64,000 bases of DNA from Paraflavitalea pollutisoli (GTDB lineage Bacteria; Bacteroidota; Bacteroidia; Chitinophagales; Chitinophagaceae). Made by a program: the position numbers and the translations under genes. The stretch lies in NCBI RefSeq assembly GCF_029360705.1, contig NZ_JARKMX010000008.1, positions 3,975,479 to 4,039,478 on the forward strand, in the 5' to 3' direction. The notes beneath the pieces are model-generated. The model was not told the origin of the DNA, made no database searches, and saw nothing but the letters and a program-made list of their open reading frames with translations. This document shows, piece after piece, positions 7,272-47,501 of this stretch (the first letter of the stretch is position 1; every line of letters starts with the position of its first letter).

Positions 7272-7326
7272 CCTCGGCAGTAGCTCGGCAGCAGCTCGGG
7301 ATGAGCTCGGCACCAGCTCGGCAGTA
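7272..7326. repeat. 11-bp tandem repeat, five copies
   Basis: Five head-to-tail units of exactly 11 bases: CCTCGGCAGTA, GCTCGGCAGCA, GCTCGGGATGA, GCTCGGCACCA, GCTCGGCAGTA. The first six bases (GCTCGG) are nearly invariant and the rest vary. The array has the same architecture as the one at 47217-47271. Confidence 0.9.
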
Positions 7327-21953: not shown

Positions 21954-22033
21954 AGCTGCTGCAATATAATACTAAATAATAGCGGGGCCGTGGTACGCCC
22001 GTAAACAACCAGTTACCTGCCAGCGAAGACAAC

Positions 22034-22066
22034 AAAAAAAGGGCCATTCATTGCTGAAGGCCCTTT
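22034..22066 (-). terminator. Terminator of the zinc-ribbon gene
   Basis: AAAGGGCC / GGCCCTTT stem with a 13-base loop. On the minus strand it ends in a run of seven T. Confidence 0.85.
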
Positions 22067-22142
22067 ATGATCTTTACGATTTGAGTTGTTGTGCCCGGAT
22101 CGGATAACGTTCCGGTAAATGATACCGACTTGCGGTCGACAC

Positions 22143-22898
22143 TTACTTGATCTCGATGCTGTCGAACAGGTCGCGGTCTACGAGGATACGACCACAGTTT
22201 TCGCAAACGATGATCTTCTTACGCTGACGGATCTCGCTCTGACGTTGAGGAGGGATCGCGTTGAAGCATCCACCACAAGCATCACGCTCTACAGGTACTA
22301 CAGACAGACCGTTGCGGTAGTTCTTACGAATACGATCGTAAGAATTCAGCAGGCGCTCTTCTACTTTTTCGCGTGCATCAGAAGAGAGTTTATTGAAGTG
22401 TGTCTCTTCTTTCTCCGTACCGGCGATGATCTTTTCGAGTTCGCCTTTCTTGGTACCGAGTACACCTTCTTTGCCGCCAATGTTCTTTTTGGCTTTGTCG
22501 AGTACCACTACTTTTTCGGCGATCTCTTCGTTGGCATCGCGGATGTGTTTTTCAGCCAGCTTCATTTCCAGTTGCTGCATTTCGATCTCTTTGTTGATCG
22601 CTTCGAACTCGCGGCTGTTCTTTACGTTCTCGCTTTGCTTTTCGTATTTCTTGATCAGAGCTTCTGCATCCTTGATCAGGTTCTTCTTGGTGTTGATGAA
22701 CTCCTGAATGCCGTTGATCTCCTCTTCAATACGTGTCTGACGGGCATGTAAGCCCTGGATCTCATCTTCCAGATCGCTCACTTCCATCGGCAGCTCACCT
22801 TTTAAAATCTGGATCTCATCGATCTTCGACTCGATCTTTTGGAGGGTAACCAATGAGGATAATTTTTCCTCAACAGAATACTCTTTTACGTTAGCCAT
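22143..22898 (-). CDS. Zinc-ribbon coiled-coil protein (C4-type)
   Basis: A 251-residue protein. Residues about 10-190 form a long antiparallel coiled coil rich in Glu, Lys and Ile. The C-terminus is a four-cysteine zinc ribbon: CGGC about 45 residues from the end and CENCGRIL about 22 residues from the end. This is the family often annotated as a C4-type zinc ribbon domain protein, related to CT398 and HP0958, which acts as a chaperone-like or nucleic-acid-linked hub in other bacteria. It lies 56 bases behind the Nif3-type gene, a pairing seen widely in Bacteroidota, so the two probably work together. Confidence 0.85.
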   Translation of the reverse strand: MANVKEYSVEEKLSSLVTLQKIESKIDEIQILKGELPMEVSDLEDEIQGLHARQTRIEEEINGIQEFINTKKNLIKDAEALIKKYEKQSENVKNSREFEAINKEIEMQQLEMKLAEKHIRDANEEIAEKVVVLDKAKKNIGGKEGVLGTKKGELEKIIAGTEKEETHFNKLSSDAREKVEERLLNSYDRIRKNYRNGLSVVPVERDACGGCFNAIPPQRQSEIRQRKKIIVCENCGRILVDRDLFDSIEIK

Positions 22899-22954
22899 AT
22901 ATGCTTTATGGTTTTTTTATTTGCAGATAAGTTCTCCAAATTGCTTTGGCCAGA

Positions 22955-24052
22955 TCAGACGAAGTAACGTACCGGGTTGGTTTTCACTTCGCTTTTAAGG
23001 ACGGCAAAGGTAGTAAATTTTTCCAGCAAAACCCTCACCAGCAGGTCGGCGGTAAACTGCTCGCTTTCGTAATGCCCGATATCGGCGATCACGAGGCGGT
23101 TGTTGGCGTCGAAAAACTCGTGGTATTTCATGTCACCGGTCACATAAAAGTCGGCGCCTACGGCTAAAGCCCTGGAAACCAGAAAACTACCAGCTCCCCC
23201 GCAAACGGCCACTTTTCGTACCGGCTTGTCGAGCAGGGGGGTATGACGGATCACCCGGAGCCCAAATTGGTCTTTGAGCAGGGTCAAAAAGGCTTTTTCC
23301 TCCAGTAGGTCCGGCAACTCACCTACCAGCCCGGCTCCTATACCAGGATGATTATTAGCGAGTTCCAACACATCGTAAGCTACCTCCTCGTATGGATGGG
23401 CAGTGATCAGGGCTTTCACGACGGCACCCTGTTGCCAGGCCGGGAATATGATTTCCAGCCTCACTTCCCGCTCTTCGTGCAGTTCGCCGGGCTGGCCCAC
23501 AAAGGGGTTGGTCCCCTCCCCACCTTTGAAGGTACCGGCTCCTTCGACTCCAAAACTGCAGTCGCTGTATTGGCCAATATGCCCTCCGCCGGCGGCAAAT
23601 ATGGCATCACGTACTTGGTTGGCCTGGGCGAGCGGGACAAACGTATACAGCTTTTTCAGGGTAGCCGATTTGGGCGCCAGGATCTGGCGTTTGATGAGCC
23701 CCAGCTTGTCGGCGATCATACCGTTCACGCCGTCCAGTACATGATCGAGGTTGGTGTGGATGGCGTAGATCGCGATATCCTGTTTGATGGCGGCAATCAC
23801 CGTTTTCTCTACATAGTTTTTCCCGTTGATCTTTTTCAGCCCCCCGAAAATGATGGGGTGATGGGCCACGATCAGGTTGCAGCCCCGACTTACAGCTTCG
23901 TTGACCACCGCCTCTGTAGCATCGAGGGTGCATAGTACCCCGTTGCACTCCCAGGCAGGGTCGCCGGTCAGCAACCCGGCATTATCGTATCCTTCCTGCA
24001 GGGAGGGAGGGGCAATGGATTCAAGATGGGCGATGATGGTGGCAATGTGCAT
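22955..24052 (-). CDS. Nif3-like dinuclear metal centre protein
   Basis: A 365-residue protein of the NIF3/YbgI family, hexameric with a two-metal site. Metal-binding parts are NLIVAHHPIIFGG (about 60-72), HTNLDHV (about 98) and, after a family-typical insert of about 120 residues, GDMKYHEFFDAN near the C-terminus. The long form with the insert is common in Bacteroidota and Firmicutes. Annotations as GTP cyclohydrolase I type 2 rest on one member; the real substrate is not settled. The zinc-ribbon coiled-coil gene follows on the same strand. Confidence 0.9.
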   Translation of the reverse strand: MHIATIIAHLESIAPPSLQEGYDNAGLLTGDPAWECNGVLCTLDATEAVVNEAVSRGCNLIVAHHPIIFGGLKKINGKNYVEKTVIAAIKQDIAIYAIHTNLDHVLDGVNGMIADKLGLIKRQILAPKSATLKKLYTFVPLAQANQVRDAIFAAGGGHIGQYSDCSFGVEGAGTFKGGEGTNPFVGQPGELHEEREVRLEIIFPAWQQGAVVKALITAHPYEEVAYDVLELANNHPGIGAGLVGELPDLLEEKAFLTLLKDQFGLRVIRHTPLLDKPVRKVAVCGGAGSFLVSRALAVGADFYVTGDMKYHEFFDANNRLVIADIGHYESEQFTADLLVRVLLEKFTTFAVLKSEVKTNPVRYFV

Positions 24053-24244
24053 GTTTGAGCATTTTTAGGAGGTACTGCATCGATACGGGCATCGCTGCAA
24101 CCCGACAAAATTCGGGAATTGGGTGCAAAGACGCTACAGCCGGCATAAAGATCAGCGTGCTGTCCCCATTTATCTATAGCATGGAAGCATAAAACAACAT
24201 TGAAAGTTTTAAATTAACCCCGCCCCGGTTAGCTTACAACCTAC

Positions 24245-24280
24245 ATGGTTAAAATATACGCAATTGTTTTATTTAACCAT
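24245..24280. promoter_or_regulatory. Inverted repeat ATGGTTAAA-N18-TTTAACCAT
   Basis: Nine-base perfect arms at 24245-24253 and 24272-24280, just upstream of the -7 element at 24299. The position fits an activator or repressor site. The left arm with its flank (ATGGTTAAAATATA) recurs almost unchanged upstream of the first double-glycine peptide gene (ATGGTTAAATTATA at 29172). Confidence 0.5.
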
Positions 24281-24298
24281 CAATTGTCCATGTTATGT

Positions 24299-24306
24299 TA
24301 TTTTTG
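24299..24306 (+). promoter_or_regulatory. Exporter operon -7 element (TATTTTTG)
   Basis: Perfect TAnnTTTG match. No TTG stands at the usual -33 distance; that region is taken up by the TTTAACCAT arm and CAATTG, which hints at control by a bound regulator. Predicted leader about 160 bases. Confidence 0.45.
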
Positions 24307-24475
24307 ACTAATATGCAATCCATGTTAAACATAGTTTCGTATACCATAGTACGACATCGGAACTGCTAACCCGGTTCCTGCCGAATGACCTCACTCCTTT
24401 TTGTTCTTAGCCTGTTTTGATACCCCTGCAAATTGCCCTGTAGGAATTTGATTTGTGAAACCAAACCGTGACTTC

Positions 24476-25633
24476 ATGTCTAGGATCTTTCCGGCAGAGA
24501 TGATGCAGGATACTGCCTATACCTGGCTGCCCAGGGTGCAGCCCAAGAGCCAGATCATCTATACCCTAGTTTTGGGGGCAGTACTGACTGCCCTGATCGC
24601 CTCGATCTTTATCAAGATCGACGTATCTGTCAATGTACCAGGTATCATCCGGCCCGTTACGGAAAAATCGGAATTGCGCAGCCTGAGTACGGCCCGTATC
24701 CTGACGGTACACGTAAAAGAAGGTGAACATGTGCAGGAAGGGCAATTATTGATGAGCCTGCGCCATGAGGTGACCGACGACAAGCTCGATCAGGCCGGCT
24801 TCGAACTGTCACAACGCGCTACGCATATGCACGACCTCGCGCTACTGGCGCGGGGGGCCGGCACCGCCAAACTCAACTCCAATCTGTATAAGCAGCAATA
24901 CCTCAGCTTTCAGGCCGGCATGGCCGAAAAGCGGTCCGTTGTCGAAAAGCTGAAGTCGGACTTTCAGATGTACAGCAAGCTGTACGAAGAAAAGGTGGTG
25001 GCCAAAAAAGAATACATAGAAAAAAAGTTCTCCTACGAGCAGGCCCGGGCCTCTTACGAGTCGGCCGTTGCGGCACAGCATAGTCAGTGGCAGCAGGAGC
25101 TGGAAAAGCTAAAGCTCGAATCCCGTCAGTGGGAGGCTGGTAGAAAAGAGCTGCAGCGCGAAAAAGACATGCTCGAGATACGCGCACCGGTAAGCGGTAC
25201 CGTTCAGCAATTCAATGGTCGCTATGAGGGCGGCTCTGTGCAGGCAGGTGAGATGCTCGGTTATATCTCGCCCGATTCGGGCATGGTCGCCGAAGTGTAT
25301 GTATCTCCGCAGGACATCGGCTATATCCAAACAGGTATGCCCGTAAAATGCCAGGTCGATGCCTTCAACTACAACTCCTGGGGCATACTGCCCGGAAAGG
25401 TCATATCGGTCGACAATGATTTCACCGTCATCAATGATGCTACTTCCTTCAAAGTAAAATGTGTACTCGATAAAAGCTACCTGCAACTATCCAATGGCGT
25501 AAAGGGCAACCTCAAAAAAGGGATGACCTTGCAATGCCGGTTCATACTGGCCCGCCGGGGTATTATGCAGCTGCTCTATGAAAAGGCCGACAGCTGGATC
25601 AATCCCAACTCCGGTCCTGTAGCTGCCAGATAA
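24476..25633 (+). CDS. HlyD-family periplasmic adaptor of a peptide exporter
   Basis: A 385-residue membrane fusion protein. A single membrane segment lies at about residues 27-46 (IIYTLVLGAVLTALIASIFI). A lipoyl-like half (VNVPGIIRPVTEKSELRS, then VHVKEGEHVQEGQLLM), a central coiled coil of about 130 residues and the second lipoyl half with IRAPVSGTVQQF follow. A C-terminal beta-barrel domain ends the protein. ATG at 24476 (MSRIFPAEM) fits relatives that begin with an IFP-x-E motif; a GTG seven codons upstream is the alternative. It links an inner-membrane ABC exporter to the outer membrane and is followed after 35 bases by that exporter. Confidence 0.88.
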   Translation: MSRIFPAEMMQDTAYTWLPRVQPKSQIIYTLVLGAVLTALIASIFIKIDVSVNVPGIIRPVTEKSELRSLSTARILTVHVKEGEHVQEGQLLMSLRHEVTDDKLDQAGFELSQRATHMHDLALLARGAGTAKLNSNLYKQQYLSFQAGMAEKRSVVEKLKSDFQMYSKLYEEKVVAKKEYIEKKFSYEQARASYESAVAAQHSQWQQELEKLKLESRQWEAGRKELQREKDMLEIRAPVSGTVQQFNGRYEGGSVQAGEMLGYISPDSGMVAEVYVSPQDIGYIQTGMPVKCQVDAFNYNSWGILPGKVISVDNDFTVINDATSFKVKCVLDKSYLQLSNGVKGNLKKGMTLQCRFILARRGIMQLLYEKADSWINPNSGPVAAR

Positions 25634-25668
25634 CATCCAATTCGTCAACCGTCCACCGCCAACACACT

Positions 25669-27831
25669 ATGAAAAAAGCCATCAAAGTAAAACAACACGA
25701 CATTACCGACTGCGGAGCAGCCTGTCTTCAATCCGTTTCTGCCCATTATAATTTACAATTACCGATCGCTACCATCCGCCAGTATGCGGGTACCGATACC
25801 AAGGGCACCAACGTGCTCGGACTGATAGAAGCCGCCACCAAAATAGGATTCGATGCAAAGGGCGTAAAGGGTAATTTTGAAGCCCTGTTCAATATGCCCG
25901 TGCCTGCCATTGCGCACGTAGTACTCAATAAAAAAATCGTACACTATGTGGTGATCTACAAGATCACCAAAGAATTCATCCTCCTCATGGACCCGGCAGA
26001 CGGTGAGCTGCACCAATATAAGCATGATGCTTTCAAAGAGATCTGGACGGGGGTTATCATCCTGCTGATGCCGGCATCGCATTTTCAGGAAGGCAATGAG
26101 AAGATATCGCATATCCGCCGTTTCTGGCTACTGCTGCGGCCTCATAAAGAAGTGACCACCCAGATCATCTTTGGCTCAGCCATTTATACGATCCTCGGCC
26201 TCGCGACTTCCTTTTACGTGCAAAACATCGTGGACCATGTATTGATCGGGGGCAATACCAGGCTCCTGAACATGATGGGCCTTACGATGATCCTGATCCT
26301 GTTGTTACAACTCGTGATCGGTGCCTACCGGAGTATTTTTGCGCTTAAGACCGGACAGCAGATCGATGCACGGCTGATACTGGGCTACTACAAACACCTG
26401 CTGCGATTACCGCAACAGTTTTTCGATACCATGCGCGTGGGGGAGATCACTTCGCGTATTACCGATGCGGTCAAGATCCGGGCCTTCATCAATGAAACGG
26501 CTACCACGCTGGTGGTGAATGTATTCATCGTTGCTTTTTCTTTCCTCGTCATGTTCCTCTATCAATGGAAGCTGGCCCTGCTGGTGCTGAGCATTATCCC
26601 GGTATACTTGTTGCTATATACCGTCAGCAACCGGTTCAATAAGAAATGGCAGCGCAAGTTGATGGAGCACAATGCCGAACTGGGCGGCCAGTTGGTCGAA
26701 TCCCTGAATACGGTCAGTACGATCAAAAGATTTGGCCTCGAGGAACACGCCAACCTGAAAACAGAATCTAAATTCATCAAGCTGCTGCGCACCATTTATA
26801 GTACCAGCATCTTCGGTATCCATGCGGGCAATGTTGGCAGCTTTGCCACGAGCCTGCTGGTAGTATGTTTATTATGGACCGGCGCCTATATGGTCGTTAA
26901 CCGCAGCCTGTCGGCTGGCGAACTTCTTTCCTTCTATTCACTCATTGGGTATTTCACCGGGCCTGCGATGGGTATCATCGGCGCCAACAAGAGTATGCAA
27001 GACGCCCTCATCGCGGCCGATCGCTTATTCGAGATCATGGACCTTGAGCAGGAAGATACTACCCGTAAAGTAAAACTGGTAGCCGGAGAAACGGGTAATA
27101 TCGTTTTTCAGGATGTTAGTTTCCGCTATGGCACACGCGTAGAAGTCTTCCGCCAATTCAGCCTTAATATTCCCGGTGGGTGTATTACGGCCATCGTGGG
27201 AGAAAGCGGCAGCGGCAAATCGACGCTCATGTCACTCCTGCAACATATCTACCCGGTCAAAAGCGGACATATCAGCATTGGTGGCAAGGATATCAAATAC
27301 CTGGATATGGAAAGCCTGCGTCAGCGGGTGAGTGTTGTACCACAACAAGTAGACCTGTTTGCCGGCTCAGTGCTCGAGAACATCGCCGTGGGCGATCTGG
27401 AACCAGATATGCAACGTGTCCTGAATATCTCCAAGGAACTGGGAATTATTGAATTCGTAGAGCAATTGCCTGCGGGATTCAATACCTGGCTTGGGGAACA
27501 TGGCGCCACACTATCTGGAGGCCAGCGTCAAAGATTGGCAATCGCTCGGGCACTGTACCGTCAACCAGACATTCTCATCATGGATGAGGCGACCTCCTCC
27601 CTCGATCCTATTGCCGATTCGCTGGTGCAACAAACCTTGCAAAGGTGGCGAAATGCCGGCAAAACGATCATCGTGATCGCACATCGGTTAAGTACAGTAG
27701 TCAATGCCGATAAAATTGTGGTATTGAAGAACGGACAGCTGCATGAAGAAGGTTCCCATCAGCAGTTGTTGGCCAACAAGGCCATGTATGCGCAACTTTG
27801 GGAACAACATCAGGGAATGATACCCGTGTAG
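25669..27831 (+). CDS. Peptidase-containing ABC transporter (C39 double-glycine peptidase exporter)
   Basis: A 720-residue PCAT. The N-terminal C39 peptidase has its active-site residues at Gln9, Cys15 (DITDCGAACLQS), His92 (HYVVIYKI) and Asp108 (LMDPADG). A six-helix transmembrane domain spans about 155-440. The C-terminal ATPase has Walker A GESGSGKST (about 510), signature LSGGQRQRLAIARAL, Walker B ILIMDEATSSLD and the H-loop IVIAHRLST. All catalytic residues are present, so it should cut leaders after Gly-Gly and export the core. Its likely substrates are the two GG-leader peptides encoded 1 to 2 kb downstream on the other strand. The order adaptor - PCAT - XRE regulator has gaps of 35 and 25 bases. 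Confidence 0.93.
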   Translation: MKKAIKVKQHDITDCGAACLQSVSAHYNLQLPIATIRQYAGTDTKGTNVLGLIEAATKIGFDAKGVKGNFEALFNMPVPAIAHVVLNKKIVHYVVIYKITKEFILLMDPADGELHQYKHDAFKEIWTGVIILLMPASHFQEGNEKISHIRRFWLLLRPHKEVTTQIIFGSAIYTILGLATSFYVQNIVDHVLIGGNTRLLNMMGLTMILILLLQLVIGAYRSIFALKTGQQIDARLILGYYKHLLRLPQQFFDTMRVGEITSRITDAVKIRAFINETATTLVVNVFIVAFSFLVMFLYQWKLALLVLSIIPVYLLLYTVSNRFNKKWQRKLMEHNAELGGQLVESLNTVSTIKRFGLEEHANLKTESKFIKLLRTIYSTSIFGIHAGNVGSFATSLLVVCLLWTGAYMVVNRSLSAGELLSFYSLIGYFTGPAMGIIGANKSMQDALIAADRLFEIMDLEQEDTTRKVKLVAGETGNIVFQDVSFRYGTRVEVFRQFSLNIPGGCITAIVGESGSGKSTLMSLLQHIYPVKSGHISIGGKDIKYLDMESLRQRVSVVPQQVDLFAGSVLENIAVGDLEPDMQRVLNISKELGIIEFVEQLPAGFNTWLGEHGATLSGGQRQRLAIARALYRQPDILIMDEATSSLDPIADSLVQQTLQRWRNAGKTIIVIAHRLSTVVNADKIVVLKNGQLHEEGSHQQLLANKAMYAQLWEQHQGMIPV

Positions 27832-27856
27832 CATTTCCCTCCAAATTAAATCTTAC

Positions 27857-28183
27857 ATGAAAAACAAAGGCCGACCAAAAATGCAACCAAGGCCGATCCA
27901 AAAACCTGTTGAAATTATGTTACCAGAAACCATTTCGCCGACAGAGTTGATCGCGACGAAGATCAGAACACTGAGAAGGAACCGGGAATATTCCCAGGAT
28001 TACATGGCGCTGATGTTACATATTTCCCAAAATGCCTACAGTCGGCTGGAGAATGGGAAGACCCCGATTACGATCGACCGCTATTACGAGATCTGCCAGA
28101 TACTGCAGGTAAAACCTGCTGAACTAATGGACCTGGTAGAGCTGCCCAAACCCAAGGCAGTGTGGAGGCGCAGTAGTTTCTAA
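27857..28183 (+). CDS. XRE-family transcriptional regulator
   Basis: A 108-residue DNA-binding protein. A basic, proline-containing N-terminal extension of about 30 residues precedes a helix-turn-helix domain (about 32-92): IRTLRRNREYSQDYMALMLHISQNAYSRLENGKTPI, with recognition helix around QNAYSRLENG. It starts 25 bases after the exporter gene, so it is part of that operon. The obvious proposal is that it controls the exporter and peptide genes, possibly through the GGTTAAA-type elements found before both; this is inference. Confidence 0.85.
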   Translation: MKNKGRPKMQPRPIQKPVEIMLPETISPTELIATKIRTLRRNREYSQDYMALMLHISQNAYSRLENGKTPITIDRYYEICQILQVKPAELMDLVELPKPKAVWRRSSF

Positions 28184-28380
28184 GAACTGAATGATCATCC
28201 CTGATGGCCGCCCTTCTGGCAGGCACTGTTACTGAGCGAGAACGGTGCTTTTCCCGTTCATTAGGTATTTACCCTGGTAACACCCACCTATTGTTATAAC
28301 GATCACCGGCTCATTCCAACGTAAAAGGATGGCCCGGTAGGTTATGTTGTTGATGACAAAGTTGCTCCTGACAGAACTAT

Positions 28381-28632
<252 letters not shown>

Positions 28633-28634
28633 GA

Positions 28635-28660
28635 AAAGGCCGGTCTAACAACCGGCCTTT
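28635..28660 (-). terminator. Terminator of double-glycine peptide gene 1
   Basis: Perfect 10-base stem AAAGGCCGGT / ACCGGCCTTT with a 6-base loop, ending in TTTTC on the minus strand. The group II intron fragment starts two bases beyond it. Confidence 0.85.
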
Positions 28661-28814
28661 GTGGCTTCAGAAGGTCATTCTGTTTGCCTGTGTCACCGTC
28701 CAAGTGAATACGTTTACTTCATCAGGCCTTACTAACCTATTGGTTCATGTGTAGACTGATGTGCGGGAATACGTTGTGTGCCTGGATGGATGGATCGTGC
28801 TTGCCTTTCCTGAA

Positions 28815-29096
28815 TTAGATAGTAGGCAGCTTGATACCAGCGATAACAGCAGCAAGGCTTGCACCTACTGCACCTACAGTGAGGCCAGCTGTGTTCAGCA
28901 GGCTACCGAGGCCAGCACCTGTCAGTGTGAGTGCGTTACCAGCACCGGTAGTGATACCACCCAGGCCAGTGAGAGCGTTGCCAAGACCGCCCAATGCGGA
29001 GTTCAGACCAGTGAACAGGCCATCAAGACCAGCACCACCATTGATTGCTGCGATTTCTGTCTCGGACAATGCTTCGAATTGATCAAAGTTTCTCAT
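28815..29096 (-). CDS. Double-glycine leader peptide 1, candidate bacteriocin precursor
   Basis: A 93-residue precursor. The leader is residues 1-21: the classic pattern F-x2-L-S-E-x-E-I-x2-I-N-G-G (FEALSETEIAAINGG), recognised by C39 peptidases. The 72-residue core is very rich in Gly, Ala, Leu and Thr, has about 18 glycines, one Asp, one Lys and no Cys, and looks membrane-active (repeated G-x3-G and LG-x2-LTGLGG patterns). It begins AGLDGL and ends KLPTI. The nearby PCAT is the natural processing enzyme. Lack of Cys argues against lanthipeptides; a class II-type bacteriocin or a signal peptide are both possible. No immunity gene is recognised. Confidence 0.8.
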   Translation of the reverse strand: MRNFDQFEALSETEIAAINGGAGLDGLFTGLNSALGGLGNALTGLGGITTGAGNALTLTGAGLGSLLNTAGLTVGAVGASLAAVIAGIKLPTI

Positions 29097-29126
29097 AAAA
29101 TGACTTTTAAAAATAAAGGAATTTTG

Positions 29127-29185
29127 ATGGGTTAAAATTGCCCTTAATCCACATATTTACCTAACCACCCAATGGTTAAATTATA
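29127..29185. promoter_or_regulatory. Two GGTTAAA-type elements upstream of peptide gene 1
   Basis: ATGGGTTAAAATTG starts at 29127 and ATGGTTAAATTATA at 29172, 45 bases apart, both written on the plus strand. They lie 31 to 89 bases before the peptide start codon. The second differs from the element before the exporter operon (24245) by one base in 14. Confidence 0.45.
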
Positions 29186-29228
29186 GCCCTGAGTTGTAAT
29201 ACCGGTGTGGGTTTCAGCCGATCGAGTT

Positions 29229-29332
29229 TTTTAGAAATGAGCGACTCGCAAGGGCTATAGCCATTTTTCAACAAGCATTGATCAATGTCAAATTATACCA
29301 CTTCAGGATGGCCACCTATTTTAGAAATGAGC
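29229..29332 (+). repeat. 14-bp direct repeat TTTTAGAAATGAGC
   Basis: Two exact copies at 29229-29242 and 29319-29332, 90 bases apart. A second, unrelated 14-bp pair (AGGTCTGTTGCCTG) is at 29482-29495 and 29613-29626. Confidence 0.7.
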
Positions 29333-29724
29333 TAAAACATGGCATTATTAATGCAACAAAAATGGGCATTGTATACGCGGCTTTGCAACAAAACCAGGCG
29401 AGCCACCCCTGTAGATACGGGCGCTTTGCAACAGTGCAGTCCGTGACCATACCCGTAGAAGACGTTATCAATACCCTAATGAGGTCTGTTGCCTGCCGCG
29501 TCTGATCACCACGCCGGGATATTGCGCCTTGTATATATACATGACCCGGGCCGCAAACACGGATACCATCAGCCATAGCAACTGCCATCCGTGGCAAGCC
29601 ACAGCAATAGATAGGTCTGTTGCCTGATAAAGAATAATGAAGCGAAGTAGAAACGGGTCCCGGAGGCCCTCATTTACCGGCGGCCTAGCGGGGAGCCGGC
29701 GCCATCATACCCGGTGGACGGGCA

Positions 29725-29752
29725 ATAAAAAAGGCCGGTTGTGCCCCGGCCT
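29725..29752 (-). terminator. Terminator of double-glycine peptide gene 2
   Basis: AGGCCGG / CCGGCCT stem with a 7-base loop, followed on the minus strand by six T. It lies 25 bases after the stop of the peptide gene. Confidence 0.85.
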
Positions 29753-29776
29753 CTTCTGACTATATATTCCCGACGA

Positions 29777-29947
29777 TTATATAGGCAGATTTGGTAAATT
29801 CAAGCCCAGAGAAGCGAGCAGAGATTTAACGAGGTCCAGCACAGTGGTGAGCAATGGTCCGATCAAAGGAATACCATCCAGTACGCCACCACCGTTGATG
29901 TTCATCATTTCTTTCTCTGTCAAGGGAGAAAACTGATTGTTTTTCAT
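29777..29947 (-). CDS. Double-glycine leader peptide 2, candidate bacteriocin precursor
   Basis: A 56-residue precursor in a very short gene. Residues 1-20 are the leader, with F-x2-L-T-E-x-E-M-x2-I-N-G-G (FSPLTEKEMMNINGG), the same pattern as peptide 1. The 36-residue core begins GVLDGIP, is hydrophobic with one Lys and two Asp, is predicted helical in the middle (LLTTVLDLVKSLLASLG) and ends NLPNLPI. It has no Cys. The xxLDG start and the LP-x-I type end match the core of peptide 1, so the two look like paralogous or partner peptides. Its own terminator follows at 29725-29752, so it is a separate transcript. Confidence 0.8.
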   Translation of the reverse strand: MKNNQFSPLTEKEMMNINGGGVLDGIPLIGPLLTTVLDLVKSLLASLGLNLPNLPI

Positions 29948-30026
29948 AATAATAGTGTTTTTAAGGTAATGAATTATTTACCTCTATAAAGGTGACTTAA
30001 CTACCCGGAGTAACCTAAACGCATAG

Positions 30027-30054
30027 GGGATAAATTATACTCGTTACGGTTAAA
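30027..30054. promoter_or_regulatory. GGTTAAA-type elements between peptide gene 2 and the divergent gene
   Basis: GGGATAAATTATAC at 30027-30040 and ACGGTTAAA at 30046-30054 resemble the elements before peptide gene 1 and the exporter operon, but less exactly. Confidence 0.3.
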
Positions 30055-30085
30055 GGCACAGGCATGCAAATTGTATAGACTTGTA

Positions 30086-30679
30086 ATGCCCAACCATAAA
30101 TTCAAAACGATGCGCACCACCTGGCTGATCTTACTGGCAATGGTATTGGCCGGCATTGCCATGTACTATGTCGCTAACCGTCAAAAGCCTGTATCTCCGT
30201 ACGACACCATTTCCATTACCAACACAGCAGACTCCATTAGCCAAAAGGTCAGGGTTTTCGTAGCCTATGATCCTGCCGAGGTAAGCTTTCGGGACAGCAC
30301 CTGGTACGAACACGATTCAATTCCCCTCAAAGAATTGTCTGTTCACCAAACGCTCAACACTTTTGACAAGCATTATACCAACGCCACCCTTTACATCGAC
30401 TATGGCCACCAATGGTTTTATGATGTAGTCGTCAACAAACCCGCTCAGGATGCAGCCTACCAACTCAACTTTACCATCAACAACAGCGCCGACAGCTTTC
30501 GGCTCGAGGCTGTCATCAACGACCCTGCCCGCGACCAGCTGCATCTTCGGGGCCCCATGATGAAAATGTACAACGCTTTCCTGCTCACCTACGGCAACAG
30601 ACTGTCCCCCAACACCGATACCACCACAGGGCCACAGGCGCCGCCGCCCGCACGCCTGATCACCGTTATCAAAAAATAA
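30086..30679 (+). CDS. Membrane-anchored periplasmic protein, function unknown
   Basis: A 197-residue protein that I do not recognise. One membrane segment lies near the N-terminus (TWLILLAMVLAGIAMYYVA), followed by a mostly beta-rich domain with RVFVAYDPAEV, ATLYIDYGHQWFYDVVV and YQLNFTINNSADSFRLEAVI, and a Thr/Pro-rich tail. Start choice is open: ATG at 30086 (used here) or at 30110; a TTG at 30071 is less likely. It is divergent from peptide gene 2 and shares its control region, so a role as an immunity or accessory protein is conceivable but unproven. Confidence 0.6.
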   Translation: MPNHKFKTMRTTWLILLAMVLAGIAMYYVANRQKPVSPYDTISITNTADSISQKVRVFVAYDPAEVSFRDSTWYEHDSIPLKELSVHQTLNTFDKHYTNATLYIDYGHQWFYDVVVNKPAQDAAYQLNFTINNSADSFRLEAVINDPARDQLHLRGPMMKMYNAFLLTYGNRLSPNTDTTTGPQAPPPARLITVIKK

Positions 30680-30712
30680 TCCGCTACCGGAAGCCCGATA
30701 GCGGATCATTAT
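30671..30712 (-). terminator. Terminator of the MG2/plug gene, overlapping the opposite gene's end
   Basis: ATCCGCTA / TAGCGGAT stem with a 12-base loop. On the minus strand the T run (TTTTTT) is the complement of the two Lys codons that end the plus-strand gene. Confidence 0.7.
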
Positions 30713-30746
30713 ATTACAAGCGCTCATCGCGCACCGTTTGTTACAA

Positions 30747-33170
30747 CTAGTCGATCATTTTTTCGATCCTCGTCAGCCTGCCTTCTTCATTCATCCCTTC
30801 CATCACCACTTTGATACGCTTGCTGACGTCGTTGTTGTAGAAAGTGATCGTTACCCTGCGATTACCCTTATCCATTAACAGGTAGGGCGACCAGTACAAG
30901 GTAGTACGTACATCTGGCACGTCATACAACGCAGCCTCCTTGCTATGGTCGGGCGCATAGAATTCTTTCATCGTAGCATAACCGGGTATCAGGTTCTTTT
31001 CCATTCCACCGGGGATGGCGCTGTTGCTCTTGGCATCATTGCCCTTACGCGTATAAATGGCGATCGCACCACCGGATCCACCACCCGATGCACCGAAGAA
31101 AGGCGGACGAAACGCCTTCACATAGGCGATATCCGAAACCGGTATATTCTGGATCATATTGGCATCCACAGGCATTTCATCCAGGAACAACGAGGTGGCC
31201 GACTGCCGCCAGGAGATCGAGGGACCATTGGCGCCGTTCATATTGATCTGCAGGCCCGCTACCCTACCCTGCAGGTACTGGAAGATATTGGTAGCCGATT
31301 GGGCGAAGGGATCATTGACCATATCGAAGGTGGTGGCATCGCCGCCGGAAAATAAGCCCCGCGCATACTTCTCATCCATTTGCTCTTTGGCCGATTTCTG
31401 CCGGGCCTTTACGGTCACAGCTTCCAGCGTCTTCACCTGCTTGGCCAGTTCGGGACGGATACGGTCGGCTTCGGCTGCAATAAACTTACTGCGGTTCAGC
31501 GCACTGGTATCCAATGGTACGGGCACGCGCCAGGCCGAATCCAACGCCAGCACCGGCAGTCCACGGTAGGTACCATTACTGAAGTTGACGACCGCACGAT
31601 CCGTTAATCGTTTGTCCTTATTGAATTGGTAATAGATCTTGACCGTATCAAAAAAGATCAACCCTTCTTCCTTGAATTGCCCCCGGCTATCGAGCGGCAT
31701 CGAGAAGAACTGACGGGAAGAGTCTTTCGATTCCATGAAGGCATTGATGGTAGCACCGGCCGGTATCTGGCTGCTTTGCATACCCAGCACCTCTCCTTTC
31801 AACGACAGATAATTATCGCGCGGATACTTCAACTCCGGCACCTTGCCCTGCGCCAGGTCGTTCCATTTGAAACGACGCCAGCCATTGGTCATCATCACCA
31901 GATCGAGGTAATACCGGGTAGAGTCGTCCACCACATTGAAGTAATAAGAAGGCTCGTTCACATATCCTTTCAGGTCGCCGGTCAGCAGCAGGTGGGAAAT
32001 AATATTGTCTTCGCCTTTATCAGCCATCACCGCATCGGTGATCGAGATCGACAGGTTGGATCGCAAGGTGTCGGGCACTTCCACAGTCACCACGTTCTTA
32101 CCACGTTTAGCCGTATTCTTGGTAGCTACGTTAATCGAGGCGTCGAAGAGATAATCTTCTTTGTTGATGAAGACGATCCTTTCAGCCAGCGGCTGCCAGT
32201 TGGCATTGAACAGGGTCATTTCGAGAATACCGGTGGGCAACTCGGCAATAGGAATGGTGCCACTGGTCATGAAATTATTGGCCAGGTTGATAGTCGCCTT
32301 ATACACCACCTGCTGGTACATATTACCCACCAGGTAAAAGCGTTGATTTTCGGCAGTAGCATTGTTGGACCGCTTGATGATGAACGACAGCAGTTTGTCG
32401 GAGCTCATCATCTGCAGTTGAGCGCCGCTGGGGCGGGCTACCGGCAGATCTGTTTTGTAGCTCTTGCCTTTGTCATCCGTCCACTCGGCATAGTAGGTTG
32501 TATTGGGCTGCGGTTCCAGGTCAAAGCGCCCCATCCCATCATGCAAACTATTGAAGTTGACTACGACAGCCCCTTTCGAGTTTTTTACGGCTCCTTTTAC
32601 ACCAACCGGGAAGCCGTAACTGTCCACGGCTTTAAAAGCGACCGGGTTGGACAGCTCCTGGACCATATCGCCCCCTTCGGGAAAGAACTTCAGCGAAGAT
32701 TTATTTTCAGCCGGCTTTTTATCGGCAGGTGTACTCTTGCTGACGATACGGATGTTTTTGCTGAACAGGAAAGTAGTATCGAAATTCAGCATCCAGGTGG
32801 TGTAAGCGCGGAAGGTCAGCGAATTATTCGTCAGGTTCAGCGGCAGGTCGAAATTGCCGGCAGTAGTACCTTCAAAGATCGGCGTCACTTTGCGTTGCAG
32901 CACCTTTCCGGTAGCCGGATCGATCAACTCTGTATAGAAGTTGTGGCTGATCACCGACGGCAACAGCCCGGAAAACAAATAGGCTTTGTACCAAATGGTC
33001 TCACCGGGATTGTACAGCGCTTTATCGAGGTGAATATGCACTTTTTCCTGGGGGAATCGCTCTCCGTATACGTTGATCATGGAGTCGATCTTTTGTGCAC
33101 GGGCCAGCGAGGGAGCTAAAGTCAAAAAGAACAGCGAACCTAAAATATAGAAAACGGATGCGTACTTCAT
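30747..33170 (-). CDS. Secreted MG2-like and TonB-plug domain protein
   Basis: An 807-residue protein with a signal peptide (about 1-25, ending ARAQ). Near the N-terminus lies an MG2-like macroglobulin domain (KVHIHLDKALYNPGETIWYKAYL). More beta-sandwich domains follow, including FRAYTTWMLNFD and SLSITDAVMADKGEDNI. Near residues 620-740 lies a TonB-receptor plug-like domain (LEAVTVKARQ, FQYLQGRVAGLQINMNG, SLFLDEMPVD, GGAIAIYTRKGND). There is no C-terminal 22-strand barrel, so it is not a receptor by itself. Such proteins are common in Bacteroidota; their role is unknown. ATG at 33170 puts the signal peptide first; the frame is open to 33239. Confidence 0.75.
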   Translation of the reverse strand: MKYASVFYILGSLFFLTLAPSLARAQKIDSMINVYGERFPQEKVHIHLDKALYNPGETIWYKAYLFSGLLPSVISHNFYTELIDPATGKVLQRKVTPIFEGTTAGNFDLPLNLTNNSLTFRAYTTWMLNFDTTFLFSKNIRIVSKSTPADKKPAENKSSLKFFPEGGDMVQELSNPVAFKAVDSYGFPVGVKGAVKNSKGAVVVNFNSLHDGMGRFDLEPQPNTTYYAEWTDDKGKSYKTDLPVARPSGAQLQMMSSDKLLSFIIKRSNNATAENQRFYLVGNMYQQVVYKATINLANNFMTSGTIPIAELPTGILEMTLFNANWQPLAERIVFINKEDYLFDASINVATKNTAKRGKNVVTVEVPDTLRSNLSISITDAVMADKGEDNIISHLLLTGDLKGYVNEPSYYFNVVDDSTRYYLDLVMMTNGWRRFKWNDLAQGKVPELKYPRDNYLSLKGEVLGMQSSQIPAGATINAFMESKDSSRQFFSMPLDSRGQFKEEGLIFFDTVKIYYQFNKDKRLTDRAVVNFSNGTYRGLPVLALDSAWRVPVPLDTSALNRSKFIAAEADRIRPELAKQVKTLEAVTVKARQKSAKEQMDEKYARGLFSGGDATTFDMVNDPFAQSATNIFQYLQGRVAGLQINMNGANGPSISWRQSATSLFLDEMPVDANMIQNIPVSDIAYVKAFRPPFFGASGGGSGGAIAIYTRKGNDAKSNSAIPGGMEKNLIPGYATMKEFYAPDHSKEAALYDVPDVRTTLYWSPYLLMDKGNRRVTITFYNNDVSKRIKVVMEGMNEEGRLTRIEKMID

Positions 33171-33408
33171 CTGCAGGTTTTTATTATTTGATCCTGGCTG
33201 GATACAGCGCCTGGTGATTGACCGTTCATCGGGCTGCATTCCTGTGTATCAGTTTCTGGTTGAACAAATTAATGCCATTATTGCCTTAAAATTCACAAAT
33301 TTTTCCGTTCAAATTGTTAAAAGCTTTTTAACACGCGTTCCCGGCAGGAATATATAGGCTGACATATCAAACATTTTACGATTTTAGCACCCCATAAAAG
33401 AAGAACTA

Positions 33409-34917
33409 ATGATGCAAACCTCCTCGGATACATTATATCAGCAATATGTCGATGCCATGCGCAAAATTGCCGACCTCCGCTACGCTTCGGCCTTGTTGCA
33501 GTGGGACCAGGAAACCTACCTGCCTGCAAAAGGAGCCGCTATCCGGGGACAACAGATTGCGACCTTGTCGGAGATTGCCCACGAACACTCCACCGCCCCA
33601 TCACTGGGTGGATTGCTACAGGAGTTGATGGGCTGCGACAACCTCACGCCAGGTCAAAAAAAGAATGTATCCCTGACCTGGGAAGACTACTCCAAACAAA
33701 AGAAATTTACGCCCGCCTTTGTACGGGAGCTGACGGAAACGGTCAACAAAAGTTTCCATAGCTGGATAGAAGCCCGCAAAGCGAATGATTTCAAAATCTT
33801 TGGCCGCCATTTGGCCCCACTGGTCGAATTGAAAAAGCAGGAAGCACAGTTACTCGGGTATGAAGGCCACCCGTACAATGCCCTGCTCAACGATTTCGAC
33901 AAAGGATCGAATGTTGCTACCCTCGATGGTGTATTTAATAATATAGGCCAACCGCTTAAAAACATACTCGACCAGATACAATCCCGTCCGCAGGTCAGCA
34001 ATGCCTTCTTACACCGCCATTACCCCAAAGACAAACAATGGGCTTTCGGCATGCAGGTACTGAAAGACCTTGGCTACGACCTCGAGGCCGGGCGCCAGGA
34101 TATGTCGGAACATCCCTTCACCACCAGTTTCAATAGCCGCGATGTGCGTGTTACCACCCGCATCGACGAACAGGACCTCGGCAATATGGTGTGGAGCTGT
34201 ATACATGAAACCGGCCATGCCCTGTACGAACAAGGACTACCCGATGAAGAATATGGGTTGCCGCTTGGCGAAGCTGCCTCGCTGACGATCCACGAATCGC
34301 AATCACGCCTGTGGGAAAACCATGTAGGGCGTAGCAAGGCTTTTTGTGAACACTATTTCCCGGTACTGCAACAGTACTTCCCCGAACAGCTGCAAGACGT
34401 TACGGTCGAAACCTTTTACCAGGGCATCAACCAGGTAAGTCCATCCCTGATCCGTACCGAAGCCGACGAAGTGACCTATCATTTCCATGTCATGATCCGG
34501 TACGAACTGGAGAAACAACTCATTGGCGGCAACCTGGCCACGAACGATATCCCGGCCTTCTGGAACGAACAATACGCCCGCTACCTGGGCGTAACCGTAC
34601 CCGACGACAAGCGGGGCTGCCTGCAGGACGTCCATTGGAGCCATGGCAGTTTCGGGTATTTCCCCACCTATAGCCTGGGAAGTTTCTACGCTGCCCAGAT
34701 TTACCGGAAAGCTTCTGAAAGCATCAAAGACATTGATAATCAAATCAAAAACGGCAACACTACCGAGCTATTGCAGTGGCTGCGTTCGGGCATACATCAA
34801 TATGGCCGCATGTATACCAGCGAGGAACTTGGACAGCGGGTAACCGGCGAGACATTAAAAATTGACCACTTTTTACAGTATATACTTGACAAATACAGAG
34901 ATATTTATAAATTTTAG
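33409..34917 (+). CDS. Carboxypeptidase M32 (Taq-type)
   Basis: A 502-residue metallocarboxypeptidase. The zinc site is [13 protein letters not shown] at about 264-276 (HExxH) with the third ligand Glu in the following [16 protein letters not shown] (about 293-308). [13 protein letters not shown] near the N-terminus and [20 protein letters not shown] are further family motifs. It removes C-terminal residues other than proline in the cytoplasm. Start ATG at 33409 or the next ATG codon at 33412. A small lipoprotein gene follows after 36 bases. Confidence 0.93.
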
Positions 34918-35660: not shown

Positions 35661-38600
35661 ATGAGGAATCATGGCCTCATAAACCGTACAGTTTTGGCTG
35701 GCTGTTTATTGTTACTGTGCACGCAGGCATTGCAGGCGCAGTTGAAGGCAGGTTTTTCTGCCGGTCCTGTAGCTGGATGTGCCCCACTGGTCGTCAGATT
35801 CAATGACGAATCCACCGGCAATCCCAGCCAGTGGCGCTGGGACCTCGGCAACGGCACGATCTCTTTTCTGCAATATCCCGCCGCTACTTATTTCAACCCC
35901 GGTTCCTACACCGTAAAACTGGTGGTCAGCAATGGTACCCAGGCCGACTCAGTAGTGAAAGTGCAGCACATCATTGTGTATGCCAGTCCCGTGGTACAGT
36001 TCTCCGCCTCCGATACCACCGGCTGCTTCCCGCTCAACGTACAATTTACCGATCTTAGTACCGCCGGTGATGGTGTGATCGAGTCACGCACCTGGGATTT
36101 TGGCGATGGCACCGTATCCGGTGAAGCCAATCCGGCCCATAGCTACAAAACGGCTGGTCAGTACACCGTATCCCTCAGCATCCGTAACAGCCATGGATGT
36201 ACCCAAACCTTCACACGCACACAATACATTCAGCTTACCAATGGCGTGCAATCCGATTTCAGCTTTGCGGTGCCCAACAGTTGTAAACCACCTACCGTTG
36301 TTCGCTTCACCAATAAAAGCACCGGAACCGGTACCCTCCGTTATACCTGGGATTTTGGCGATGGACAGCAATCCACCCAGGCTAATCCTGTACATACCTA
36401 TGCCACCGCCGGAACCTATTCGGTGAAGCTGGTCACCCGCAACAATACCGGCTGTGCCGACTCTGTCGTTAAAGCCAACCTCATCAATATCGGCACCGTA
36501 AAAGCAGGCTTTGCTGCGCCCGCCATTGTGTGCAGCAACAATCCCGTTAATTTTTCCAACAACAGTACACCGGCCCCCGTGAGTGCGTCCTGGAATTTTG
36601 GTGATGGTACAACCGCCAGCGACCTCAGCCCTGTTAAGATCTATACGCGCCCAGGCAACTACACCGTGAAGCTGGTCAGCGATTTTGGTGCCTGTAAAGA
36701 CTCGGTCAGCCAACCGATCCGTGTGGTAGCCCAATCAAAAGCCAGTTTCGACCTCAACGACAGCACGGCCTGCAGCGCCCCCTTTGCAGCCACGCTCGCT
36801 GCCGGCACTCCGGATGCCGTTCGCTATGAGTGGCGTTTCGGCGATGGCGGCCGCGATTCGGGCAAAACGGTGGCCCATACCTGGCAGACTCCCGGAAACT
36901 ACGATGTGACCCTCATCGTCACCAATGCGGCAGGCTGCACGGATACGCTGGTCAAAAAGAATCACCTGCAGATCAGACCACCGCGGGTAACCATCATCAA
37001 TCTTCCGCAGGAGGGCTGTGTGCCCTTTGCCTGGCAGCCACAACTTGATATCGATACAGTCGATTCACTTACAGACTTTCGCTGGTATTTCGGTGACGGC
37101 AATACCTCCACGGAGAGATTGCCCCGGCATACCTACACACAGCCCGGCACTTATACGGTCAGGCTGGTATACACAACGGCCGGTGGCTGTAGTGATTCCG
37201 TCATCGTCCGTGAAACCATCCTCGTCGGCAACAAGCCAGTGGTGGATTTCTCGGCCAACCCACTCATTAGTTGTGCCTTTCAGCTCATCAATTTCACCGA
37301 CCGCAGCACCGGCCCCAAGGCCGACCGCTGGTTATGGTCCTTTGGTGATGGCAGTACGGCAACAGAACAATACCCCCGCCATGCTTACCTCGATACCGGT
37401 TATAGGCACGTGAAGCTGGTGGTGTGGAACAACGGCTGTAAGGATTCCGTTACGAGGAGGAACTATGTGTACATCAAACCACCGGTTGCGCTATTCGACG
37501 TCAACGCCATCGATTGCCGCAACCGGTTTTCCCGCTCCTTCACCGACAAATCGCTGGGCGCAACGGCCTGGTACTGGAATTTCGGAGATGGACAATTCTC
37601 TACCGACCGTCATCCCACCCATACCTACGCGCGCCCCGGCAACTACCTCGTAAGCCTCACCGTAAAGAACGATACCTGCGAACATACCCGGCAACAGCAA
37701 TTGTTGGTAATTGCAGAAAAAGCTGCCTTCACCATCAGCGATTCCATTGCCTGTAAAAATAAACCGCTGACCTTATCAGCCATCAACACCACGGCTGCCA
37801 ATGTGGCGAAATATGGATGGACGATCTCCAAAGGCAGCCGTGTATTTGGCACGCCCACCGGCCAATCGATCTCCTTTTCGTTTCCCGATGCCGGGCAGTA
37901 TACCATACGACTGATCGTAACAGATATATATGGTTGTACCGATACGCTGGTAAAACCGCAGGTGGTACAAGTGTATGGTCCTACCGCCGACTTTGCGGTC
38001 ATCAACCCGGAAGTCTGTATCAACTCCACTGTACATTTTGCCGATTCGTCTGTATCGGACGGTCAACATGCCATTCAGCAATGGCGTTGGGACTATGGCG
38101 ATGGCGCTACTGAACTCCTTACCGGCGGGCCTTATCAGCACAATTACAACAAAAGTGGTTTGTTTGCCGTGAAGCTGACCGTCACCGATGAACTCGGTTG
38201 TTCCGATAGCCGGCTAAAGCAACAGGCGGTTACTATCTCTACACCCGTTCCTAATTTCACGTCGCCCGATACATTGTCGTGTACGGGTGGGGCCGTCCGT
38301 TTTGTGAACCAAACCACGGGCAGCCATCCGATCTACCGCTGGGATTTTGGCGATGGCGTTACCAGTGCTGCACAGCAACCTGCTCACCAGTATAAGACAG
38401 AAGGCGACTATACGGTAAAACTGGTCGCCTCCGATCGCTATGGCTGTGCCGACTCGATCACACGGCTGCAATACATTCATATCCGTGATCCACGCGCACG
38501 CTTCGTGATGAGTGATTCTTTTGCTACCTGCCCGCCACTCACCGTCAACTTCACCCAGCAATCCATGCATTTTCGGGAAGTGCTGTGGGATTTTGGAGAC

Positions 38601-40475: not shown

Positions 40476-40549
40476 GATGGTATTATTATTGTTTGCAAGA
40501 CGTGCCCTACTGAAAGACCAGTCTCTGTAAACCACCCAAACACAGTACC

Positions 40550-44929: not shown

Positions 44930-44970
44930 CAGAAAATCCGATATTAAACCACCACATCAAACCTGGTAGT

Positions 44971-47113: not shown

Positions 47114-47501
47114 TTATAGTCGTTTTTAAGTGATCAACAGGCGCTGCCTGCCTGGCATTATTATGCCTGTACCCCTGTTTTATAGCTAAAGCATTGACAA
47201 TGTACGCCCTACAAGAGGATGCAGCGGAGATACAGCGGAGATGCAGCGGACATAGAGCGGAGTTATAGCGGCCTTATATAGAGGCGCTGCATCTATGCTG
47301 CAAGTACAGTCTGTCGCGCCTGGCACGGCGCTGCTTGACCGCCTCATCCATAGTTCATGCGGGTACCAGCCACGCTTTTGCAACCTATACGGTTGCCAAC
47401 AGCAGCGGAACCAGTGACCCGGCGAGCTTTAGCTGAACTACATGGCTTTGCCCCGATGCCCCGTCATACGACGGGATTGCCTGAATGCCCCGGAACTTTC
47501 T
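47114..47501. other. Gap with 11-bp tandem repeats between two convergent genes
   Basis: 388 bases between the sorting-domain gene and rlmI, which converge. Apart from the 11-bp array (47217-47271) nothing recognisable was seen, and no strong terminator. A short inverted piece (GGCGCTGCAT at 47283, ATGCTGC at 47295) lies right after the array. Confidence 0.5.
47217..47271. repeat. 11-bp tandem repeat, five copies
   Basis: Five head-to-tail units of exactly 11 bases: GGATGCAGCGG, AGATACAGCGG, AGATGCAGCGG, ACATAGAGCGG, AGTTATAGCGG. The AGCGG half is invariant while the other half drifts. Copy number and unit length equal those of the array at 7272-7326. Confidence 0.9.

What the first reader, a model, noticed from the sequence alone, without database searches (positions are those of the whole stretch)
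24476..29947. Self-contained double-glycine peptide export system: HlyD adaptor, C39 exporter, XRE regulator and two precursor peptides
Seen: an operon of HlyD-type adaptor, PCAT with all peptidase residues intact, and an XRE regulator; then two minus-strand genes for short peptides with near-identical GG leaders, one of them (56 codons) below usual gene-calling limits. Established: C39 domains of PCATs cut after Gly-Gly and export class II bacteriocins or signal peptides. Inference: the peptides are the exporter's cargo and form a bacteriocin or quorum-type system of a Bacteroidota bacterium. The cores are Cys-free and unlike textbook class II bacteriocins.
Basis: partly seen in the sequence, partly recalled or inferred. 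Interest (0 to 1): 0.88.

Follow-up and report, generated by a model that had tools for sequence, protein, structure and literature searches.

The report
Two-peptide secretion cassette with own regulator
A Bacteroidota bacterium carries a conserved set of genes that appears to make, cut and export two small greasy helical peptides under a shared genetic switch; what the peptides do outside the cell is unknown, but it can now be tested directly.

Summary
HlyD, a C39 peptidase-ABC exporter (PCAT) and a small XRE gene lie in a row; two minus-strand genes encode GG-leader peptides P1 (93 aa) and P2 (56 aa). Both frames are real: they recur beside the orthologous exporter in all 5 genomes held for the genus, pN is below pS in every pair, and the leaders carry the residues that C39 peptidases read. 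Full-length P2 occurs in 12 of 394 family genomes; all 12 have P1 and an exporter next to it.

New here: P1 and P2 share an upstream element, also found before the exporter operon in this genus. Among 44 exporter loci it is present in 9 of 9 with the XRE gene and 0 of 35 without, so XRE probably controls the cassette. Both cores are near-neutral, Cys-free amphipathic helices; P1 has a 7-residue repeat, not a glycine zipper. No immunity gene, sensor kinase or outer-membrane channel is conserved with the cassette. That P1/P2 are the cargo is well supported; I favour a two-peptide membrane-active antagonist, but bacteriocin, signal or surface role is not settled. New member of the known GG-peptide/PCAT kind.

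The parts
24236..24280 (.). Element upstream of the exporter operon, with inverted repeat ATGGTTAAA / TTTAACCAT (24245-24253, 24272-24280)
   Evidence: Matrix built from P1/P2 upstream sites scores 22.2 at 24247-24270 (-), not a training site; 292 control stretches reach at most 6.6; repeat. Also upstream of HlyD in congeners L055, L056, L057 (19.4, 15.5, 22.5), weak in L058 (10.1); no score above 9 there in L008, L010, L049, 12.9 in L009
24476..25633 (+). HlyD-type periplasmic adaptor (alternative GTG start 24455)
   Evidence: PF13437 E 2.5e-16; next to the exporter in the relatives
25669..27831 (+). PCAT: C39 peptidase plus ABC exporter, 720 aa
   Evidence: PF03412, PF00664, PF00005; TIGR01193 over cut-off; PCAT1 4ry2 E 4.7e-169; Gln9, Cys15, His92, Asp108
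27857..28183 (+). XRE-type HTH regulator, 108 aa
   Evidence: PF01381 E 9.2e-13; co-occurs with the upstream element in 9 of 9 loci
28638..28653 (-). Terminator-like hairpin after P1
   Evidence: 11 such sites found, 6.1 expected in shuffles of the region
28815..29096 (-). P1: 93-aa GG-leader peptide, predicted cut after residue 21; Gly-rich helical core with a 7-residue repeat
29160..29197 (-). Upstream element of P1, with TAACCA-N5-TGGTTA at 29162-29178
29731..29747 (-). Terminator-like hairpin after P2
29777..29947 (-). P2: 56-aa GG-leader peptide, predicted cut after residue 20; amphipathic helical core
   Evidence: TIGR01847 18.2 bits, cut-off 15.7
30014..30051 (-). Upstream element of P2 (a weak copy: 3 mismatches to the consensus pattern, no AACC/GGTT palindrome)
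   Evidence: (score 18.9)

Best explanation
This is a dedicated secretion cassette for two peptides. P1 and P2 are made as GG-leader precursors; the C39 domain of the exporter cuts them after GG, and the ABC part, with the HlyD adaptor and a TolC-type channel encoded elsewhere, exports the helical cores. The XRE protein binds an element upstream of P1, P2 and, in this genus, the exporter operon, so that the transcripts are controlled together. Outside the cell the two amphipathic cores most likely act together on membranes of competing, probably related, bacteria, as two-peptide bacteriocins and microcins do. Shown by computation: genes, conservation, leader register, catalytic residues, shared element and its co-occurrence with XRE, helical periodicity. 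Inferred: cleavage, export, XRE binding and its direction, joint membrane action.
For: Intact C39 residues and PCAT1 alignment. Leaders with Phe-15, Leu-12, Glu-8, Ile/Met-7, Ile-4, Gly-Gly, the register of PMC6363468 (passages). Full-length P2 in 12 of 394 family genomes; 12 of 12 have P1; the C39 match lies 3.2-4.2 kb from P2 in 11, and in the twelfth (G300) the contig ends inside the exporter, as seen in L046. pN below pS in 10 of 10 pairs for each. Shared element; 9 of 9 XRE loci have it, 0 of 35 others. Hydrophobicity period at 98-100 degrees for both cores. P1 and P2 stay together where the cassette lies in another neighbourhood (L008).
Against: No immunity gene conserved with the module. 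Cores have charge 0 and -1. No antimicrobial, expression or cleavage data. The element before the exporter is clear in 4 of 5 genus genomes but not in L008, L010 or L049; the AACC-N7-GGTT palindrome is in 9 of 10 P1 but only 4 of 10 P2 upstream regions, and not in window P2. The structure models are of low confidence (pLDDT 58.6 and 66.6).
Confidence: 0.5

Rival explanations
1. Surface or matrix peptides: the exported helices assemble on the producer's own surface or in its biofilm and need no immunity gene.
For: No immunity gene conserved; near-neutral, Gly/Ala/Leu-rich repeating cores; a characterised GG-like system, Cdz, keeps its peptides as surface aggregates (PMC5380434 passages).
Against: Cdz aggregates kill; no aggregation tested here; the GxxxG zipper is not enriched in window P1.
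Confidence: 0.2
2. Signal peptides: one or both cores are cell-cell signals read by a receptor elsewhere, with XRE in the response.
For: Weak leader similarity to ComC models; a regulator in the cassette; no immunity gene.
Against: No kinase conserved with the module; XRE shows only an HTH domain, no peptide-sensing repeat; a 72-aa repetitive core is long for a pheromone (recalled).
Confidence: 0.12
3. Self- or kin-lysis peptides, like the gonococcal Naps, acting on the producer's own population at a given growth phase.
For: Naps are C39-processed bacteriocin-like peptides with a local regulator and no detected killing of other species (PMC11798529 passages); no immunity gene seen here.
Against: Naps are cationic, have an immunity protein NapI and a FapF-like channel; P1/P2 do not.
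Confidence: 0.08
4. Chance small frames next to an exporter that carries something else.
For: P1 is low in complexity; no expression data.
Against: pN below pS; linkage in all 12 P2-bearing genomes; 0 hits in the shuffled control; retained together in L008.
Confidence: 0.02

Closest known systems
PCAT/AMS exporters with GG-leader substrates (PCAT1, ComA, LahT)
   Same: Domain order, catalytic residues, leader register
   Different: Works with an HlyD adaptor; cargo families have no curated model
Class II microcins with CvaA/CvaB/TolC export (recalled; papers seen only in the listing)
   Same: HlyD plus PCAT, channel encoded elsewhere, GG leaders
   Different: Two peptides, no immunity gene found, Bacteroidota
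Class IIb two-peptide bacteriocins
   Same: Two co-conserved helical peptides; leader resemblance to lactococcin G and cerein models
   Different: Separate transcription units with own terminator-like sites; no immunity gene; charge 0 and -1
Cdz glycine-zipper bacteriocin of Caulobacter (PMC5380434, passages)
   Same: Type I exporter with small Gly/Ala-rich peptides, no TolC gene in the cluster
   Different: Window P1 has no GxxxG enrichment; no CdzI-like gene found; leaders of classic GG type
Bacteroidetocins (PMC6671954, passages)
   Same: Bacteroidota GG peptides beside a peptidase-ABC exporter
   Different: No Cys, leaders of 20-21 instead of 15-16 aa
Neisseria Nap peptides (PMC11798529, passages)
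   Same: Several C39-processed bacteriocin-like peptides with a local regulator
   Different: Naps are cationic, have NapI and a FapF-like channel

Membership tests
PCAT/AMS exporters (TIGR01193) | C39 domain fused to ABC membrane and ATPase domains, over the curated cut-off | tested here: met
   (525.4 bits against 523.85)
PCAT/AMS exporters (TIGR01193) | Catalytic Cys, His, Asp and oxyanion Gln | tested here: met
   Gln9, Cys15, His92, Asp108; Gln-Cys spacing 6 and His-Asp spacing 16 as in LahT
GG-leader peptides | Hydrophobic -4, -7, -12, Glu-8, Gly-Gly | tested here: met
   Both peptides
GG-leader peptides | Cleavage after GG | not testable with these tools
   Needs enzyme or mass spectrometry
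Class IIb bacteriocins | Two peptides inherited together | tested here: met
   12 of 12 genomes with full-length P2 have P1
Class IIb bacteriocins | Dedicated immunity gene | tested here: not met
   None conserved with the module; the neighbouring 202-aa gene is also in genomes without the peptides
Class IIb bacteriocins | Antimicrobial activity that needs both peptides | not testable with these tools
   -
Cdz glycine-zipper bacteriocins | Extended GxxxG repeats | tested here: not met
   Window P1: 4 GxxxG against 4.1 expected, no GxxxGxxxG; relative L009 is nominally enriched (11 against 6.8, p 0.025), the other P1 cores are not
Cdz glycine-zipper bacteriocins | CdzI-type immunity protein | tested here: not met
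   No further gene conserved with the module
Bacteroidetocins | At least two Cys in the core and a 15-16 aa leader | tested here: not met
   No Cys in P1 or P2; leaders 21 and 20 aa
ComC/Blp-type quorum peptides | Linked histidine kinase and response regulator | tested here: not met
   None conserved with the cassette; ComC matches of both window peptides are below the Pfam cut-off

The most novel reading that the evidence does not exclude
P1 and P2 define a new class of secreted peptide pair: near-neutral helices, P1 with heptad or 11-residue glycine repeats, exported under one XRE switch with no immunity gene, that assemble together on the producer's surface or in kin cells instead of acting as diffusible toxins.
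Probability: 0.2. Interest if true: 0.75.

Novelty: new member of a known kind. Interest (0 to 1): 0.5.

Why it matters
One cassette gives an exporter, its two likely cargoes, a candidate regulator and its candidate operator together, so cargo, cleavage, regulation and activity can each be tested with simple deletions. The missing immunity gene makes the usual bacteriocin label a hypothesis to be tested. The Cys-free repeating helical cores are a type that the curated family models tried here match only in or near the leader. Among the rows shown by the literature searches (several lists were cut) I saw no description of such a system in Chitinophagaceae; the library lacks most subscription papers.

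Tried and rejected
Immunity gene: the divergent 202-aa gene (30071 or 30086-30679) was the best candidate. It adjoins P2 in 11 of the 12 cassette genomes, which would fit; but its profile matches 23 of 394 family genomes, 9 of them in another genus (g72) that has neither peptide, and in G033, which has the cassette, it lies on another contig. Disfavoured as a dedicated immunity gene, not excluded.

Glycine zipper: suspected from composition, not borne out by shuffling in window P1; a 7-residue period was found instead. Of 11 P1-type cores, L049, L024 and L101 show no period and L055 only a weak one (p 0.02).

Wider regulon: with up to 3 mismatches the element pattern gave 15 hits in 5 genomes, 11 before cassette peptides; the reversed control pattern gave 8. 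Of the other 4, I listed the frames around three and saw no GG peptide; two of them (1 and 2 mismatches, same contig of G003) may be real second targets and were not followed. The strict pattern gave 7 hits, 6 before cassette peptides, control 0.

Weak matches set aside: P2 hits in G010, G302 and G375 (31.0, 23.4, 23.4 bits) and the P1 hit in G148 (31.8 bits) were not counted. G010 has a P1-like peptide (59.3 bits) 1.5 kb from an exporter, without full-length P2 and without the element.

Loci left out: L051-L054 (25-31% identity, partial) were not used. L026 (42% over 57 residues, E 3e-11) and L041 (30%, E 1e-4) have generic HTH matches to XRE that I did not count as orthologues.

A protein alignment of XRE was not obtained. 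Fold searches were not run, since both models have low confidence.

Full report
What is there. The window lies in an 8.76 Mb genome; the nearest named exporter relative is Paraflavitalea sp. CAU 1676 (88% identity), whose contig has the same length and place as G004 of the window's genus. On the plus strand an HlyD adaptor (24476-25633), a C39 peptidase-ABC exporter (25669-27831) and a 108-aa XRE protein (27857-28183) follow each other with gaps of 35 and 25 nt. On the minus strand P2 (29947 to 29777) and P1 (29096 to 28815) point towards them. Each peptide gene is followed by a terminator-like hairpin, so each may be transcribed alone. The exporter passes TIGR01193, aligns with PCAT1 over residues 2-716 and has Gln9, Cys15, His92 and Asp108. 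It is the only PF03412 match at E 0.01 in the genome. The genome has 54 PF02321 matches, so outer-membrane channels exist, but none is conserved with the cassette.

Are the small frames real? Yes. All 5 genomes held for the genus (the window's own included) carry the exporter, 84-88% identical in the other four, with P1 and P2 beside it. Between congeners pS is 0.39-0.71 and pN 0.10-0.19 for P2, and pS 0.50-0.70 and pN 0.09-0.27 for P1, 10 pairs each; several dS values are near saturation. The leader matrix, trained on 16 leaders that include both window leaders, gave 0 hits in 420,280 bases of block-shuffled DNA. In the family, 15 of 394 genomes match the P2 profile and 14 of 394 the P1 profile at E 0.001. 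Full-length P2 matches (83 bits or more) are in 12, in three genera, and all 12 have P1. A C39 domain at E 1e-15 is in 133 of 394. In 11 of the 12 the C39 match starts 3.2-4.2 kb from P2 on the same contig. In the twelfth (G300) the listed C39 match is on another contig; L046, whose three peptides are identical to those of G300, shows the contig ending inside the exporter. In a sample of 198 genomes of the class only the window's own matched either profile at E 1e-4, so these peptide families look narrow.

Leaders. Both have Phe-15, Leu-12, Glu-8, Ile or Met-7, Ile-4 and GG. LahT holds Leu-12, Leu-7 and Val-4 of its leader in a hydrophobic groove, and a Leu-12/Glu-8/Leu-7 consensus is given for ComA (PMC6363468, passages). 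P2 passes the curated cut-off of TIGR01847 (18.2 against 15.7 bits). Window P1 matches no NCBIfam model; of 11 P1 rows, 5 match Pfam Bacteriocin_IIc and 7 ComC at E up to 1, best E 3e-5 and 2e-4.

A shared element. Alignments of 10 P1 and 10 P2 upstream regions show a common element 99-106 nt before the ATG, roughly ACAAC-N7-TATAATTTA-N10-GGTTAGG, with deviations. A matrix from those 20 sites, run over the 64 kb, gives P1 (31.5), the region upstream of the exporter operon (22.2, not a training site) and P2 (18.9) as its three best hits. In 292 overlapping control stretches of the same length the maximum was 6.6. In the other congeners the exporter site scores 19.4, 15.5, 22.5 and only 10.1; in L008, L010 and L049 nothing above 9 is found there, in L009 12.9. 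The window's P1 copy holds TAACCA-N5-TGGTTA and the exporter site an inverted repeat with the same TTTAACCAT half-site. AACC-N7-GGTT with at most one mismatch in AACC is in 9 of 10 P1 and 4 of 10 P2 regions, and not in window P2.

Who binds it? Among 44 loci (L007-L050) the 9 with an XRE orthologue near the exporter score 18.5 or more and the 35 without score 13.1 or less. Five of the nine were training loci and two more (L007, L040) are the same sequences as training loci, so L013 and L014 (26.8 and 18.5) are the independent ones. L024 and L041 have a GG peptide but no XRE orthologue, and lack the element, so it follows XRE and not the peptide. In 23 Chitinophagaceae-like loci that I classed by hand have both peptide and XRE, 2 peptide only, 0 XRE only and 12 neither (Fisher p 7e-5; relatedness not corrected). 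I infer that XRE binds the element; activation or repression cannot be told.

Cores. P1 core: 72 aa, 25% Gly, 72% G/A/V/I/L, charge 0. P2 core: 36 aa, charge -1. Neither has Cys. Both have their strongest hydrophobic periodicity at 98-100 degrees per residue (z 3.4 and 2.9, best of 51 angles, not corrected), as amphipathic helices do. P1 shows a 7-residue self-repeat (20 identities at lag 7 against 9.5 expected); L009 and L087 show 11- and 18-residue repeats; L049, L024 and L101 show none. AlphaFold models are helical (P1 23-43 and 48-87; P2 29-46) but of low confidence. GxxxG is not enriched in window P1 (4 against 4.1); in L009 it is, nominally (11 against 6.8, p 0.025).

What is missing. 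In L008 the cassette sits in a different neighbourhood (no NIF3, MG2 or M32 gene nearby). I compared all its frames of 30 codons or more with those of the window stretch 22000-34000 and of L009, L010, L049 and L056 at E 1e-3. Apart from antisense or shifted frames over the same genes and one 23-residue match, only HlyD, PCAT, XRE, P1 and P2 match. The 202-aa gene beside P2 is in 9 genomes of another genus without the peptides, though it adjoins P2 in 11 of 12 cassette genomes. So no immunity gene or sensor kinase is shown to belong to the module.

How it most likely works. XRE sets expression; precursors are cut and exported by PCAT and HlyD with a shared channel; the two helical cores act together outside the cell. 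Membrane-active antagonism seems most likely (0.5 for the whole statement), mainly because the closest characterised systems do that. The missing immunity gene and near-neutral charge keep surface assembly (0.2), signalling (0.12) and kin-lysis (0.08) open.

Compared with known systems. Exporter and leaders are ordinary members of the PCAT/GG-peptide kind. The pair fails tests for bacteroidetocins (no Cys, longer leaders; PMC6671954, passages), for Cdz (no zipper enrichment in window P1, no immunity gene; PMC5380434, passages) and, on immunity, for class IIb bacteriocins. Naps (PMC11798529, passages) are cationic and have NapI. The rows shown by the literature searches held no description of these peptides.

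Noticed in passing
window 28381-28545 (-): Fragment of a group II intron (RF02001, 87.4 bits) between XRE and P1. This stretch has no blastn match in the four congener loci; six shorter matches of 48-81 bases lie elsewhere in the genome.
   Followed up: partly
L087 1495-2077: In G105 a second pair of GG peptides, one with striking 11-residue Gly repeats, lies on a contig (C2) other than that of its two C39 matches (C1), with a weak copy of the upstream element (16.5).
   Followed up: partly
L056 4086-5736: Genus member G002 has four GG peptides at the locus; the third also has the element upstream (29.6).
   Followed up: partly
L011, L012, L015-L022, L037, L050: Mostly Chitinophaga loci with the HlyD-PCAT pair but no GG peptide found by my scan and no XRE orthologue: their cargo is unknown.
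   Followed up: no
L026 3665-4553 and L028 3437-4614: Mucilaginibacter loci with tandem near-identical Ser/Gly-rich GG peptides upstream of HlyD.
   Followed up: no
L030 8473-9263 and L047 8462-9214: Algoriphagus loci with three GG peptides each, near-identical leaders and quite different cores.
   Followed up: no
window 35661-46011 (+): Two large PKD-repeat proteins (1604 and 1459 aa) with CHU_C type IX secretion domains, followed by a PorP/SprF gene.
   Followed up: no
window 7273-7324 and 47218-47271: Two short arrays of 11-base tandem repeats.
   Followed up: no
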